The notes under the pieces are model-generated. The model was not told where the DNA came from. It did no database searches and worked only from the letters and a program-made list of their open reading frames with translations. 58,243 nucleotides of DNA from Sulfurovum sp. (GTDB lineage Bacteria > Campylobacterota > Campylobacteria > Campylobacterales > Sulfurovaceae), in the NCBI GenBank assembly GCA_027071315.1, contig JALSUP010000148.1, positions 1 through 58,243 of the forward strand, read 5' to 3'. This document shows positions 4,518 to 58,066 of the stretch, one piece after another. The number at the start of each line of letters is the position of its first letter. Positions within the stretch are counted from its first letter, which is position 1. Both the position numbers and the translations under genes were made by a program.

Positions 4518-4588
4518 GTAGGTTCGATTTCATCGAACACCTACCCAAAAATAAATATCATATATGCATTCGATAAAATCGAACTTAC
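4518..4588. repeat. REP-like inverted pair, family F
   Basis: The first unit has GTAG at 4518-4521, then stem GTTCGAT (4522-4528) paired with ATCGAAC (4532-4538), then CTAC at 4541-4544. A second unit in the opposite sense has stem TTCGAT (4569-4574) with ATCGAA (4578-4583), followed by CTTAC, a one-base variant of CTAC. The layout is that of the other REP families here (GTAG plus hairpin, inverted pair) with a different stem sequence. It lies just downstream of the M3 peptidase gene and abuts a family A element. Confidence 0.6.
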
Positions 4589-4594
4589 AAAAAT

Positions 4595-4672
4595 CGCGTA
4601 GGGTGCGTATTCACGCACCGCATAAATAAATTTGCATACAACAAAAATATCTGCCGAAAGGCCAAAATAATA
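4595..4672 (+). repeat. Truncated REPIN, family A
   Basis: GTAG at 4598-4601 is followed by the hairpin GGTGCGT (4602-4608) and ACGCACC (4613-4619). The conserved spacer with the inner hairpin GCCGAAAGGC follows at 4653-4662. The second inverted REP present in full copies is missing. The element instead runs straight into the ribosome-binding site of the next gene, so it forms part of that gene's 5' region. Confidence 0.8.
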
Positions 4673-4685
4673 TATGGAGAAAAAA

Positions 4686-5213
4686 ATGAAAGAGTACCGT
4701 TCCCTAGCCCTCATTGTCATCGCACTCTTTGTCATTACCCTTGTCGGCGCCTATTTCAGCCCGACCTTCAATGAGCAAAAAACCTTCCTTGAGCTTTTCA
4801 TACTCATGGGCGCCCTTCTCTTTATCTTCTCCGCACTGGTCATCTTTGCCACCATCGGCTTTGCCTCTTTTGCCATCTACCTCGCCATTTTCATTGCAGC
4901 GGTCATGGGGATGTACGGTATTGAAGGTGCTTTCCTTGTCACTGGTCTGACCTACCTCGTTTGGGGTTCCATCTTTTCCATGGAAGTACTGCTCTTTTAC
5001 AATGGACTCAAAAGTGCACAGGAGTGGTTTGAGGAACGCTATACATTCAAATCCTTTAAAAATGAATATTATGCCTTCTATCCGATGTTGTTTATTGCTT
5101 ATCTGTTTCTGGAATTGATACCGAGTTTTTTGTATAGAGAGAGTTTTTTGAAGTTCAAGCCTTCGAAAGTGTTGAAGAGAATGGAAAAATTTCTACCTGA
5201 GGGGAAATCGTAG
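4686..5213 (+). CDS. Hypothetical integral membrane protein
   Basis: A 175-residue protein with about four hydrophobic segments: near residues 5-25, 35-60, 60-90 and 125-145. A charged loop (EWFEERYTFKSFKNE) precedes the last, and the tail is basic and acidic. No family is recognised. I set the start at ATG 4686 because GGAGA lies six bases upstream; an in-frame ATG at 4674 would place that site inside the gene. The TAG stop (5211-5213) is part of the GTAG tetranucleotide of the REPIN that follows, so the present C-terminus may have been set by insertion of that repeat. REP elements flank the gene on both sides. Confidence 0.75.
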   Translation: MKEYRSLALIVIALFVITLVGAYFSPTFNEQKTFLELFILMGALLFIFSALVIFATIGFASFAIYLAIFIAAVMGMYGIEGAFLVTGLTYLVWGSIFSMEVLLFYNGLKSAQEWFEERYTFKSFKNEYYAFYPMLFIAYLFLELIPSFLYRESFLKFKPSKVLKRMEKFLPEGKS

Positions 5214-5306
5214 GGTGCGTATTCACGCACCACATAAATAAATCTGCATAAACTACAAATCTCCGCCGAAAGGCTTAACAACAAGGTGCGTAATTACGCA
5301 CCCTAC
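5210..5306. repeat. REPIN, family A (complete)
   Basis: A 97-bp element bounded by GTAG (5210-5213) and CTAC (5303-5306). The left hairpin is 5214-5231 (GGTGCGT, ACGCACC), the inner hairpin GCCGAAAGGC is 5265-5274, and the right hairpin is 5285-5302. It sits between the convergent membrane-protein and argG genes. Its left GTAG overlaps the membrane-protein stop codon, and its right end is three bases from the argG stop. Confidence 0.9.
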
Positions 5307-7947: not shown

Positions 7948-8043
7948 GTAGGGTGCGTAATCACGCACCTCATCATACAATTTGCATATCACAAAAATAT
8001 CTGCCGAAAGGCCAAACAAAAGGTGCGTGATTACGCACCCTAC
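7948..8043. repeat. REPIN, family A, inside the pdxJ-pdxA gap
   Basis: A 96-bp element running from GTAG (7948-7951) to CTAC (8040-8043). Hairpins are at 7952-7969 and 8022-8039, with the inner GCCGAAAGGC at 8003-8012. It fills almost the whole space between pdxJ and pdxA. Its right end directly touches the GGAGG ribosome-binding site of pdxA, so it lies inside the presumed common transcript. Confidence 0.9.
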
Positions 8044-11972: not shown

Positions 11973-11994
11973 GTAGGGTGCGTGGTTACGCACC
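11973..11994 (+). repeat. Solo REP, family A
   Basis: GTAG (11973-11976) is followed by hairpin GGTGCGT and ACGCACC with loop GGTT (11977-11994). There is no partner unit and no conserved spacer. It lies in the 39-base gap between the convergent yqeY and trpC stops. Confidence 0.8.
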
Positions 11995-16056: not shown

Positions 16057-16151
16057 GTAGGTCGGGGTGTCCTCACCCCGACATTTGATTCGCATACAAT
16101 GATATGTGAATACGTTTAAATATTTGTCGGGGTAAGGGTACCCCGACCTAC
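16057..16151. repeat. REPIN, family B
   Basis: A 95-bp element from GTAG (16057-16060) to CTAC (16148-16151). The left hairpin 16061-16082 pairs GTCGGGGTG with CACCCCGAC. The right hairpin 16126-16147 pairs GTCGGGGTA with TACCCCGAC. The stem differs completely from family A, but the layout and length are the same. Its right end provides the TAG stop of mnmC. Confidence 0.85.
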
Positions 16152-41375: not shown

Positions 41376-42332
41376 CTATTTTACTGTACTGAAACTGGCA
41401 TCCAAACGTACGGGGTCTATCTTTTCCGATAGCAGTTCATCATCGAAATATTTAGCCAGATAAGCCTTCATATCGTCAAATAAAGGTGCAGTAAACTGCA
41501 TCTTTTCGCCTGTCGCAGGATGTGTCAAATATAATAAATAAGCATGTAGATTAACGCGTGCTATTTTATCTCTTTTGCTCTTAAAACCATATAAATTATC
41601 ACCCAATATGTGACGTCCCAAAACATTCAAATGCACACGTATCTGATGCGTTCGCCCCGTAAAGAGTTTCGCCGCGATCAACTCTGTTCCGTGTGCTGTA
41701 TCTAAAAGCTTTTTAAAGGCAGTTTTCGCACTTTTTCCATGCTGGACGACATCCATTCTGAGTCTATTGTTGGGGTTGCGCCCGATGGGTTTATCGACAA
41801 TGACATCATCTTTTAACGGACAGTCTATCAAAGCCAGATAGTAACGCCCCATACTCTTGTCCTGTAGCTGCTCACTCAGGGCTTCATGTGTTTTATTGTC
41901 TTTAGCCACCACCAAAGCACCGGTAGTCTCTTTGTCTATTCTATGCACGATCCCATGACGTTCTTCCCCCGAAATAGTCGAAAGAGAGATGCCTTTATGT
42001 ATGAGCCAGTCCACCAGGGTAGGCTCTTTCACAGAAGGGGCAGGATGCACCACAAGACCAGAAGGCTTATTGATGATCAAAAGATATTCATCTTCATACA
42101 GTATCTCCACATCAAAGTCTATCTCCACCGCCTCACGCTTTTCTGCTTCTTTGAAGGTATAAGCAATCTCATCACCCTCGGCTACCTTCACACTGTTCTT
42201 GGTAATGGTTTTCCCATTGACAGAAACCAAGCCATCCTTGACAAGCTTCTCAACCTGATTACGACTGACATCAAGTTGTGCAGCTAAAACTTTGTCAATT
42301 CGCCCAGTAGTAGTCGTTATAAATTTATTCAT
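41376..42332 (-). CDS. rluD: RluA-family 23S rRNA pseudouridine synthase (RluD-like)
   Basis: Isomerises uridine in 23S rRNA; RluD acts on helix 69. It has an N-terminal S4 domain (about 14-75, KVLAAQLDVSRNQVEKLVKDGLV). The catalytic aspartate lies in HRIDKETTGALVVAKD (about 131-146), followed by GRTHQIRVHL. The 318 residues fit. A weak GAGATGA site precedes the ATG. A REPIN starts 16 bases upstream of the ATG and occupies the likely promoter region. Specificity towards the RluD rather than RluC sites is inferred. Confidence 0.9.
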   Translation of the reverse strand: MNKFITTTTGRIDKVLAAQLDVSRNQVEKLVKDGLVSVNGKTITKNSVKVAEGDEIAYTFKEAEKREAVEIDFDVEILYEDEYLLIINKPSGLVVHPAPSVKEPTLVDWLIHKGISLSTISGEERHGIVHRIDKETTGALVVAKDNKTHEALSEQLQDKSMGRYYLALIDCPLKDDVIVDKPIGRNPNNRLRMDVVQHGKSAKTAFKKLLDTAHGTELIAAKLFTGRTHQIRVHLNVLGRHILGDNLYGFKSKRDKIARVNLHAYLLYLTHPATGEKMQFTAPLFDDMKAYLAKYFDDELLSEKIDPVRLDASFSTVK

Positions 42333-42347
42333 TTCATCTCATCTCGC

Positions 42348-42444
42348 GTAGGGTGCGTAATCACGCACCTTTTTGTTTGGCCTTTCGGCATAATTTTTCA
42401 TTTTATTCAAATCGTATTATGTGGTGCGTGATTACGCACCCTAC
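42348..42444. repeat. REPIN, family A, RAYT locus copy 1
   Basis: A 97-bp element from GTAG (42348-42351) to CTAC (42441-42444), with hairpins 42352-42369 and 42423-42440. The inner hairpin is in the reverse orientation (GCCTTTCGGC, 42380-42389) compared with the copies at 5210, 7948 and 43150. It lies directly upstream of rluD. Confidence 0.9.
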
Positions 42445-42504
42445 GGTGTATCTATCACTCACTCTATTCTTAATATAAATTATAACCAATTTTTACAAAT
42501 CCCC

Positions 42505-42602
42505 GTAGGGTGCGTAGTCACGCACCATGAAACCAAAATATCATCGCAATAATACATTCTCCGAAAAGACCAAACAAAAAGGTGCGTGATTACGCACCCT
42601 AC
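42505..42602. repeat. REPIN, family A, RAYT locus copy 2
   Basis: A 98-bp element from GTAG (42505-42508) to CTAC (42599-42602), with hairpins 42509-42526 and 42581-42598. The inner hairpin has decayed (CCGAAAAGACC near 42561). It ends nine bases from the stop codon of the transposase gene. Confidence 0.88.
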
Positions 42603-42611
42603 GCGTGGTTT

Positions 42612-43082
42612 TTATGTCTGTTTATGGAACGATGAATATTGCCACTTTCTGGGATCATCTGTATATTCATGTTTAACAGGATTCTTATACATGTATTTTA
42701 ATTTTTCCTGGAGAACTTTGTCATTTCTAATGGTATGCTCATAAAATCTTTTTTGCCATATTGGCTTTATACCTCTGTTCTCTCTACTTACAGACTGCTC
42801 CAGACCAGCATAATATTTCGGATCACAATACCGACTGAAATATCTTTTGATGGATGAAATGATCTTTGGATATTCCGTGGCATTTTGGGGAGAGATGATC
42901 ATGTGAAAATGATCAGGTAGAATGACAATAGCATCAATACGGTAATCATACTTTGTTCTGCTTTCTCTAAATGCAGTTCTCAACAATGCCAGCTTTTCTA
43001 TCAATATAGGATTTCTTTGATGTGTCACAACCGTGATGAAATAACTGTAACCATCCAGAAATATACGTGTATAATTTGCCAT
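42612..43082 (-). CDS. REP-associated tyrosine transposase (RAYT)
   Basis: A 156-residue Y1/HUH single-strand nuclease of the IS200-like RAYT family. The HUH pair is H58-F-H60 in LPDHFHMIISP. Candidate nucleophile tyrosines are Y81 and Y85 in SIKRYFSRYC. The C-terminal blocks IWQKRFYEHTIRN, YKNPVKHEY and WQYSSFH are the typical RAYT signature. No second gene or insertion-sequence end accompanies it. It is flanked on both sides by inverted REP pairs with 5' GTAG feet, the expected substrates of this family. No strong ribosome-binding site precedes the ATG. Assignment to RAYT is strong; activity is inferred. Confidence 0.88.
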   Translation of the reverse strand: MANYTRIFLDGYSYFITVVTHQRNPILIEKLALLRTAFRESRTKYDYRIDAIVILPDHFHMIISPQNATEYPKIISSIKRYFSRYCDPKYYAGLEQSVSRENRGIKPIWQKRFYEHTIRNDKVLQEKLKYMYKNPVKHEYTDDPRKWQYSSFHKQT

Positions 43083-43149
43083 ACAACAATTCTAACCATA
43101 TACAAAAGCATATGACAAAAATATGTCATATTGTCATTTTTTTTCACGC

Positions 43150-43246
43150 GTAGGGTGCGTATTCACGCACCACATAATAAAATCTGCATAAAATATAAAT
43201 GGACGCCGAAAGGCCAAACAAAAAGGTGCGTGAATACGCACCCTAC
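43150..43246. repeat. REPIN, family A, RAYT locus copy 3
   Basis: A 97-bp element from GTAG (43150-43153) to CTAC (43243-43246). Hairpins are at 43154-43171 and 43225-43242, with inner GCCGAAAGGC at 43205-43214. It lies between the RAYT start and the ttcA stop. With the two copies on the other side it brackets the transposase gene. Confidence 0.9.
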
Positions 43247-43273
43247 GCGAAACCAAGATAGATGTATGATGCG

Positions 43274-44125
43274 TTAAATATCATCCCTGTCCCAGCGTTC
43301 CGGGTCTAAGAAGGTATCATCGTGAATATGTTTGAATGAGGCTTTGAACATTTTGAAAATATCTTTATTCTCTTCTTCCAAACCTGCAAGCCATGCTTTT
43401 GTCGAGGCTCTGGCATGGGGCATTTTGACATCTTTAAGCATGGCTGGGCAGGCTTCGTCGCCTATGACCTGGAGGTTGTTGTCTTCGGCAAATCCTCTGA
43501 GCTGTGATTCACGTACCTGTATCAGCGGGCGAATGAGGTGGAAACCTCTGCCTGTTTTGTAGATGGGTGCCAGGGCTCTCATGCTTCCATTGTAAAACAT
43601 ATTCATGAAAAAACTCTCTACTGTGTCATCAAAGTGGTGACCGAGTGCCACTTTGTTAAAGCCGCCCTCTTCTGCAAAAGTATAGAGTGCACCTCTTCGC
43701 ATACGGGAGAAGTAAGAACAAAATGAAGAGTTTTCTCTGATGGTATCATGCGAGATTTCAAAGATGTTCGTGTCATAAACCGTATGTTTAATTTCATACT
43801 CTTCACAATGCTTGCTCAAGAAGTCATAATGTTCATCGGGCATACCATACTTAATGGTACAGGCTTCAAATTCAAACTTGAAGGGTGCATGGCGCTGTAC
43901 ATGTTTGAGGGCATGCACCAAAGCTAAGGAGTCTTTTCCGCCACTCAATCCCACAAGGATCTTGTCTCCCTCTCCAATGAGTTTGAATTCGGCATTGGTT
44001 CTGCCGATGACTCTGAGGAGTTTTTTACTCATGGGTATTTTTTTGGGTAATACTCTTTTTGGTTTTATCTCTTCCAATTGTTTCTCTTTATTTTGGTGCG
44101 TGACTACGCACCCTACATTTTTCAT
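43274..44125 (-). CDS. ttcA: TtcA-like PP-loop tRNA thiolation enzyme
   Basis: A PP-loop ATPase of the TtcA/TilS superfamily; TtcA makes 2-thiocytidine at position 32 of tRNA. The PP-loop SGGKDS is at 61-66 and the family segment FSRMRRGALYTFAEE follows at 139-153. The E. coli enzyme needs a CxxC before this segment plus a third cysteine for a [4Fe-4S] cluster; here C136 is present but the partner is F139, and C226 may be the third. The start is uncertain. From ATG 44125 the first codons read through a REP hairpin (VGCVVTHQ). TTG 44077 and ATG 44032 (MSKKLLRVIGRTN) are alternatives. Confidence 0.8.
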   Translation of the reverse strand: MKNVGCVVTHQNKEKQLEEIKPKRVLPKKIPMSKKLLRVIGRTNAEFKLIGEGDKILVGLSGGKDSLALVHALKHVQRHAPFKFEFEACTIKYGMPDEHYDFLSKHCEEYEIKHTVYDTNIFEISHDTIRENSSFCSYFSRMRRGALYTFAEEGGFNKVALGHHFDDTVESFFMNMFYNGSMRALAPIYKTGRGFHLIRPLIQVRESQLRGFAEDNNLQVIGDEACPAMLKDVKMPHARASTKAWLAGLEEENKDIFKMFKASFKHIHDDTFLDPERWDRDDI

Positions 44126-44152
44126 ATTCCGTAGGGTGCGTAATCACGCACC
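44095..44152. repeat. REP pair, family A, tail to tail
   Basis: The left hairpin 44095-44112 is followed by CTAC (44113-44116). After 14 bases comes GTAG (44131-44134) and the right hairpin 44135-44152. The GTAG feet face inward, unlike in REPINs, and the conserved spacer is absent. The ATG usually taken for ttcA (44123-44125) sits between the two units. Confidence 0.85.
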
Positions 44153-57989: not shown

Positions 57990-58066
57990 TTCTGAGTAGT
58001 CTGGCAATCTTCGTGAGACCCATAACTTTCCGCCCTGTCCTCGCAAACAGTTTAGCTTTGTGCAGA
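57990..58066 (-). promoter_or_regulatory. Probable c-di-GMP class I (GEMM) riboswitch aptamer
   Basis: On the minus strand the leader reads GCTAAAC, then a 6-bp hairpin closed by a GCGA tetraloop (58035-58050), then GGGCGGAAAGTTATGGGTCT (58014-58033), then a short hairpin, and finally GATTGCCAGACTACTC (57994-58009). This order matches the GEMM layout as I know it: GCAAAC, hairpin with GNRA loop, GACGCAAAGCYAYGGGNCU, second hairpin, then AGCCAGNUACC. The match is by eye and several conserved positions deviate. A -10 box sits eight bases upstream and the surface operon lies downstream. Confidence 0.6.

What the first reader, a model, noticed from the sequence alone, without database searches (positions are those of the whole stretch)
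42348..43246. A RAYT transposase bracketed by its likely REP targets in a Campylobacterota genome
The 156-residue gene at 42612-43082 has the HUH pair and the C-terminal signature of REP-associated tyrosine transposases. It is flanked by three inverted REP pairs (42348-42444, 42505-42602, 43150-43246), all with GTAG at the 5' foot of a hairpin. In E. coli and Pseudomonas, RAYTs bind exactly this kind of GTAG-plus-hairpin single strand. I know of REP/RAYT systems mainly from Gammaproteobacteria, so a complete locus here would extend the picture. Function in this host is inferred.
Basis: partly seen in the sequence, partly recalled or inferred. Interest (0 to 1): 0.85.

Follow-up and report, generated by a model that had tools for sequence, protein, structure and literature searches.

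The report
RAYT transposase flanked by its REPINs
A Sulfurovum-like bacterium carries a small DNA-cutting enzyme flanked by the short hairpin repeats that it most likely spreads around the genome; this is an already described kind of bacterial system, though in this bacterial family the pairing between enzymes and repeats is unusually easy to see.

Summary
The gene at 42612-43082 lies on the minus strand and encodes a catalytically intact REP-associated tyrosine transposase (RAYT): 147 bits against NCBIfam REP_Tyr_transpos, and its model fits E. coli TnpA-REP (4er8) at Z 19.2. Three REPINs flank it: GTAG plus a perfect 7-bp stem with a 4-nt loop, paired head to head over about 97 bp. The genome holds 72 such REPs. 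Many relatives lack the cassette (flanking genes 24 bp apart, against 945 bp here). Across the family, 60 of 72 related RAYTs have GTAG hairpins alongside, and RAYT divergence tracks REP stem divergence (Mantel r=0.54; 0 of 2000 permutations). Best reading: a RAYT that binds, nicks and spreads its own REPINs as single-stranded DNA; activity was not tested. It is not new to the phylum: GTAG REPs in Sulfurovum and TnpA-REP relatives in epsilonproteobacteria were published in 2013 and 2018. Site comparison shows these are partly inherited and partly lineage-specific, which fits RAYT loss or turnover better than no link. Verdict: new member of a known kind.

The parts
42612..43082 (-). RAYT (TnpA-REP) gene, 156 aa, HUH H58/H60, catalytic Tyr Y130
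   Evidence: NF047646 147.3 bits, cut-off 80; 4er8 Z 19.2, rmsd 1.6
42348..42444 (.). REPIN 1: head-to-head family A REPs 42348-42369 (+) and 42423-42444 (-) with 53-nt spacer
42505..42602 (.). REPIN 2: REPs 42505-42526 (+) and 42581-42602 (-)
43150..43246 (.). REPIN 3: REPs 43150-43171 (+) and 43225-43246 (-)
44095..44152 (.). tail-to-tail pair of family A REPs, 44095-44116 (-) and 44131-44152 (+), at the 5' end of the ttcA-like gene
41376..42332 (-). rluD-like gene (RluA-family pseudouridine synthase), one border of the insertion junction
43274..44125 (-). ttcA-like gene (PP-loop family), other border; its true start is probably further in, since relatives align from residue 20-30
5210..5306 (.). 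family A REPIN elsewhere in the window
7948..8043 (.). family A REPIN elsewhere in the window; empty junction in several relatives
4598..4619 (+). single family A REP
11973..11994 (+). single family A REP

Best explanation
This is a REPtron: a RAYT gene with its cognate REPs arranged as REPINs, inserted between a ttcA-like and an rluD-like gene in a Sulfurovum-like genome. Most likely the RAYT binds one strand of a family A REP or REPIN when it is single-stranded, for instance at the replication fork. It would read the GTAG foot through its W109-Q110...E115-H116..R119 motif and the GGTGCGT hairpin through its alpha-3 region. It would then nick with Y130 under HUH-metal catalysis and rejoin the strand elsewhere, so that ~95-bp REPINs spread to other intergenic sites. 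Shown here: fold, catalytic residues, genomic pairing of RAYT and REP, co-variation of the two across the family, REPIN unit structure, and filled versus empty sites in relatives. Inferred: binding, cleavage, copying and any benefit to the host.
For: The family match and fold are clear. The residues of the GTAG-reading region in E. coli (W94, Q95, E100, H101, R104; PMC6006769) are all kept at 109, 110, 115, 116 and 119, and all five are invariant in 51 relatives. Family A units form ~93-98 nt REPINs with a shared asymmetric spacer at scattered sites, and fold far better than shuffles (z -5.5 for a single REP, -8 to -10 for REPINs). Sixty of 72 related RAYTs have GTAG hairpins within 500 bp; permuted feet give 0-5 loci, apart from the shifted echo TAGG. 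Mantel r is 0.54, 0 of 2000 permutations. REP labels need 25 changes on the RAYT tree against 55 when shuffled, 0 of 200 as low. The window genome carries two further RAYTs of this subfamily, each with a different stem of its own. The ttcA-rluD gap is 945 bp here and 24 bp in G154, G014, G138 and others. The 7948-8043 REPIN is absent at the same junction in G154, G156, G134, G042, G108 and G100.
Against: No activity was measured. A clade of relatives (G150, G092, G110, G102, G148, G118) has many family A REPs and no cognate RAYT. G090 has the closest RAYT (70%) but only two exact family A copies, both beside that gene. So presence of the RAYT and REP number do not track each other within the genus.
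Confidence: 0.88

Rival explanations
1. The RAYT is a passenger or a domesticated host enzyme, and family A REPs persist as host elements (for instance transcript-end hairpins or protein-binding sites) independent of it.
For: Six genomes of one clade keep family A without a cognate RAYT, and many of their sites are shared by descent with intact or nearly intact stems. Some copies have a T-run after the hairpin.
Against: Lineage-specific copies with clean empty sites exist in the same clade (the L288 site and L305:1184), so the repeats moved after the clade split. REP stem type follows RAYT type across the family. In the window REPs sit in co-directional and convergent junctions alike, so there is no terminator layout.
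Confidence: 0.15
2. The locus is a classical IS200/IS605 insertion sequence whose ends happen to be hairpins.
For: The protein belongs to the Y1 transposase superfamily (PF01797, 39.6 bits), and the cassette has a clean empty site in relatives.
Against: The NCBIfam IS200 model scores 32 bits, below its cut-off of 55, while REP_Tyr_transpos scores 147. The three related RAYTs of this genome are only 54-57% alike to the window one, so they are not recent IS copies. There are 72 family A REPs but one copy of the gene with them.
Confidence: 0.04
3. The repeats beside the gene are chance neighbours: the junction is merely a hot spot where REPs of any kind collect.
For: The ttcA-rluD junction holds REPs or RAYTs of several kinds in other species: G112, G158/G159, G118, G042, G090 and G094.
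Against: RAYT and REP kinds match within each locus. In the window all six REPs beside the RAYT are family A although at least five GTAG stem types exist in this genome.
Confidence: 0.03

Closest known systems
E. coli TnpA-REP / RAYT (PDB 4er8), group 2 = subclass 2.2
   Same: Fold (Z 19.2, rmsd 1.6 over 139 residues), HUH, Y115 equivalent, and the W, Q, E, H, R residues of the GTAG-reading region; REPs in inverted pairs beside the gene.
   Different: 34% identity in the structural alignment. It lacks the E. coli C-terminal tail (with G160/E161), though 14 of the 72 related Sulfurovaceae RAYTs carry a 19-26-residue tail. Its REPs are short perfect palindromes without the E. coli bulge.
Group 3 (subclass 2.5) REPtrons of Stenotrophomonas and Marinomonas (PMC8266576)
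   Same: Short perfect hairpins behind GTAG, and no E. coli-type C-terminal tail.
   Different: Keeps E at the position of E. coli E100, where PMC6006769 reports D in subclass 2.5.
GTAG repeats and tyrosine transposases reported for Sulfurovum NBC37-1 and other epsilonproteobacteria (PMC3733652, PMC6006769)
   Same: Same phylum and same kind of GTAG repeat, with tyrosine transposases encoded in the genome.
   Different: The consensus of the published Sulfurovum family sits in a figure that the tools do not hold, so identity with family A could not be checked.
REPINs of Pseudomonas fluorescens (PMC3116915)
   Same: Two inverted REPs with a spacer dispersed as one unit.
   Different: Tens of copies here, and several RAYT/REP pairs in one genome.

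Membership tests
RAYT / TnpA-REP | Y1-type HUH fold with H-u-H and a single catalytic tyrosine | tested here: met
   H58, H60, Y130; H58/H60 invariant and Y130 in at least 90% of 51 relatives; model vs 4er8 Z 19.2
RAYT / TnpA-REP | Scores over the curated REP_Tyr_transpos threshold and above the IS200 model | tested here: met
   147.3 bits vs cut-off 80; IS200 32.2 vs cut-off 55
RAYT / TnpA-REP | Gene flanked by GTAG-footed hairpins in inverted pairs that are also dispersed in the genome | tested here: met
   three REPINs; 72 copies genome-wide
RAYT / TnpA-REP | Residues of the GTAG-reading region (W94, Q95, E100, H101, R104 in E. coli) | tested here: met
   W109, Q110, E115, H116, R119, invariant
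RAYT / TnpA-REP | Strand-specific cleavage and rejoining of single-stranded REP | not testable with these tools
   needs purified protein
Subclass 2.2 (E. coli type) | Bulged long REPs and a C-terminal tail contacting GTAG | tested here: not met
   perfect 7-bp stems; protein ends where E. coli residue ~140 aligns
Subclass 2.5 (group 3) | Short perfect REPs, no tail, D at the E100 position | tested here: inconclusive
   short perfect REPs and no tail, but E at that position
IS200/IS605 insertion sequence | Several near-identical full-length mobile copies; IS200-type transposase | tested here: not met
   IS200 model below cut-off; nearest paralogues 54-57% identical
REPIN | Two inverted REPs with a conserved spacer, found as one unit at unrelated sites and absent from the same sites in relatives | tested here: met
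   15 of 16 distinct units are 93-98 nt long, most with a shared spacer motif; empty sites

The most novel reading that the evidence does not exclude
In Sulfurovaceae the RAYT-plus-REPIN cassette itself is still a mobile or frequently exchanged unit, not a settled single-copy domesticated gene. Genomes carry up to seven matches of this RAYT subfamily, most pairing with their own stem. Cassettes of different kinds occupy the same ttcA-rluD junction in different species. REPIN families go on moving, or persist, in lineages where the matching RAYT has disappeared. This would make the family a natural system for learning the RAYT-hairpin recognition code.
Probability: 0.35. Interest if true: 0.55.

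Novelty: new member of a known kind. Interest (0 to 1): 0.33.

Why it matters
Three RAYT/REP pairs were compared in vitro in the 2021 study (PMC8266576), and recognition of perfect-hairpin REPs has no structure yet. Here one bacterial family offers about 60 RAYTs with identified flanking REPs, including three matched pairs in one genome and clear empty sites. That makes the recognition code, and the question of whether REPs outlive their RAYT, directly testable.

Tried and rejected
I considered that REPINs insert just upstream of ribosome-binding sites (GGAG), because several window junctions look that way; only 1 of 48 family A flanks fits, so this was rejected. I considered that other Y1 transposases of the genus (C-terminal HTH type, subclass 2.1-like) explain family A in RAYT-less genomes; none of those examined has family A REPs beside it. 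Rfam has no family for the repeats. A permuted foot, TAGG, scores in 41 loci, but these are the same hairpins read one base in. A tail-versus-stem rule (C-terminal tail with 3-nt loops) is suggestive but confounded by descent. Stem conservation among shared sites cannot be read as selection, because most sites were found by exact match.

Full report
What is there. The window is contig C148 of a 2.59-Mb, 217-contig genome. The relatives that carry the closest RAYT genes are named Sulfurovum, Campylobacteraceae or Epsilonproteobacteria in their records, so the host is a Sulfurovum-like member of Campylobacterota. The gene at 42612-43082 is on the minus strand and encodes 156 residues. It scores 147 bits against NCBIfam REP_Tyr_transpos (cut-off 80) and only 32 against IS200 (cut-off 55). 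The nearest solved protein by sequence is E. coli TnpA-REP, 4er8. An AlphaFold2 model (pLDDT 92.9) aligns with 4er8 at Z 19.2, rmsd 1.6 over 139 residues, well above the IS608/ISDra2 and other IS200-type transposases at Z 9-12. H58, H60, W109, Q110, E115, H116 and R119 are invariant in 51 relatives and Y130 is present in at least 90%. In E. coli the five W/Q/E/H/R positions belong to the GTAG-reading region (PMC6006769, PMC8266576).

The repeats. Family A is GTAG-GGTGCGT-NNNN-ACGCACC, 22 nt. The window has 15 matches at up to 3 mismatches, and shuffles give none. The genome has 72 at up to 2 mismatches, and the reversed pattern gives none. A general foot-plus-hairpin scan finds 17 GTAG hairpins in the window and at most 3 for any permuted foot. 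Fifteen of 16 distinct paired units in the genome are 93-98 nt long, most with a shared asymmetric spacer (one arm followed by a T-run and GCCTTTCGGC, the other by ACATAAT or similar), so the dispersed unit is a REPIN. A single REP folds as DNA with z -5.5 and REPINs with z -8 to -10 against shuffles. The base before GTAG is a pyrimidine in all 48 flanks read.

Empty sites. In relatives of the same genus the two flanking genes (ttcA-like and rluD-like) are neighbours with a 24-bp gap in many species (G154, G014, G138, G033 and others). In the window genome the gap is 945 bp and holds the RAYT and three REPINs. At the junction of the 7948-8043 REPIN, G154, G156, G134, G042, G108 and G100 have no insert, while G090, G024 and G014 have REPs of other families in the same spot. 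So the REPINs are additions, and junctions are re-used.

RAYT-REP pairing across the family. In 120 genomes of the family, 41 have a match to this protein; in 78 genomes of the genus, 30 do. In a sample of 397 genomes of the phylum only 10 do, all in the same family. Of 72 full-length RAYTs collected, 60 have GTAG hairpins (stem at least 7 bp) within 500 bp. Permuted feet give 0-5 loci, apart from TAGG, which is the same hairpin shifted. Pairs of RAYTs less than 10% apart always share a stem; at 40-50% apart under 1% do; Mantel r is 0.54, 0 of 2000 permutations. On the RAYT tree the stem labels need 25 changes against 55 when shuffled. The window genome has three such RAYTs with three stems: family A here, GGTGCGTT at C78, and GGTGTTGT at C7. 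Some relatives outside the phylum (Marinicella, Alcanivoracaceae, Acinetobacter, a Planctomycetota bacterium) also have GTAG hairpins beside the gene.

Family A exact copies in the genus: window genome 65, G150 70, G092 36, G110 32, G102 23, G042 22, G024 13. Among the RAYT loci read, only those of the window genome and G090 (2 exact copies, both beside its RAYT) have family A flanks. G150, G092 and G102 have no RAYT of this subfamily at E 1e-10; G024 and G042 are single-contig genomes with RAYTs of other stems. Other Y1 transposases examined there are not flanked by family A. G150, G092, G110, G102, G148 and G118 form one clade on a ttcA/rluD tree. Comparing sites, 8 of 26 G110 sites coincide with the 20 G150 sites sampled, about what full sharing would give, while some G150 sites are cleanly empty in G092, G110 and G102. 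My reading is that family A spread in an ancestor, went on moving for a while, and the RAYT was lost or sits in assembly gaps. REPs without a RAYT are already reported (PMC3733652, PMC6006769). This weakens any claim that REP count reports a resident RAYT; it does not separate family A from RAYTs.

Comparison with what is known. GTAG repeats in epsilonproteobacteria and in Sulfurovum NBC37-1, and tyrosine transposases encoded in that genome, were reported in 2013 (PMC3733652). TnpA-Y1 subclasses in epsilonproteobacteria, the rule that each tnpA-REP has its own REP family, and horizontal transfer were discussed in 2018 (PMC6006769). Group 2 and group 3 recognition was studied in vitro in 2021 (PMC8266576). 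The present locus mixes traits of both groups: E. coli-type residues in the GTAG-reading region, but short perfect hairpins and no C-terminal tail. I file it as a RAYT/REPIN system and leave the subclass open.

What is shown and what is inferred. Shown: anatomy, family, predicted fold, pairing, co-variation, empty sites. Inferred: binding, cleavage, copying, benefit to the host. Confidence that the gene is a RAYT paired with these REPs is high. Confidence in recent activity is moderate, resting on intact catalytic residues and on the near-identity of family A copies: 65 of 72 are exact in this genome, against 13 of 30 in G024 and 22 of 43 in G042; with a single RAYT-positive, REP-rich genome this contrast is only suggestive.

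Noticed in passing
L038-L097 and L128-L149, 3' ends of RAYT genes: In 20 of 72 RAYT genes the stop codon TAG is the TAG of the GTAG foot of the downstream REP, so the gene ends inside its own presumed recognition site. The window RAYT is not one of them (TAA, REP about 10 bases further on).
   Followed up: partly
window 41376-44125 (ttcA-rluD junction) and the same junction in G112, G158, G159, G118, G042, G090, G094: One intergenic junction carries RAYTs or REPs of several unrelated kinds in different species; hot spot or cassette replacement is undecided.
   Followed up: partly
window 16057-16151: A REPIN of another family (GTAGGTCGGGGT..., 9-bp stem) whose matching RAYT kind exists in G090 and G035 but was not found in this genome.
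   Followed up: no
window 4518-4538: A REP of the GTTCGAT kind next to a family A REP; matching RAYTs were seen here only in other genera of the family.
   Followed up: no
L063 / L077 (G060:C46:6495-7561): Two RAYT genes 98.7% identical in tandem, each with the same REP pair behind it, which suggests a recent cassette duplication.
   Followed up: no
window 57992-58066 (-): c-di-GMP-I riboswitch, 42.8 bits.
   Followed up: no
G000:C133, C68, C181, C149: Four further Y1_Tnp genes of other classes in the window genome, without family A REPs beside them.
   Followed up: partly
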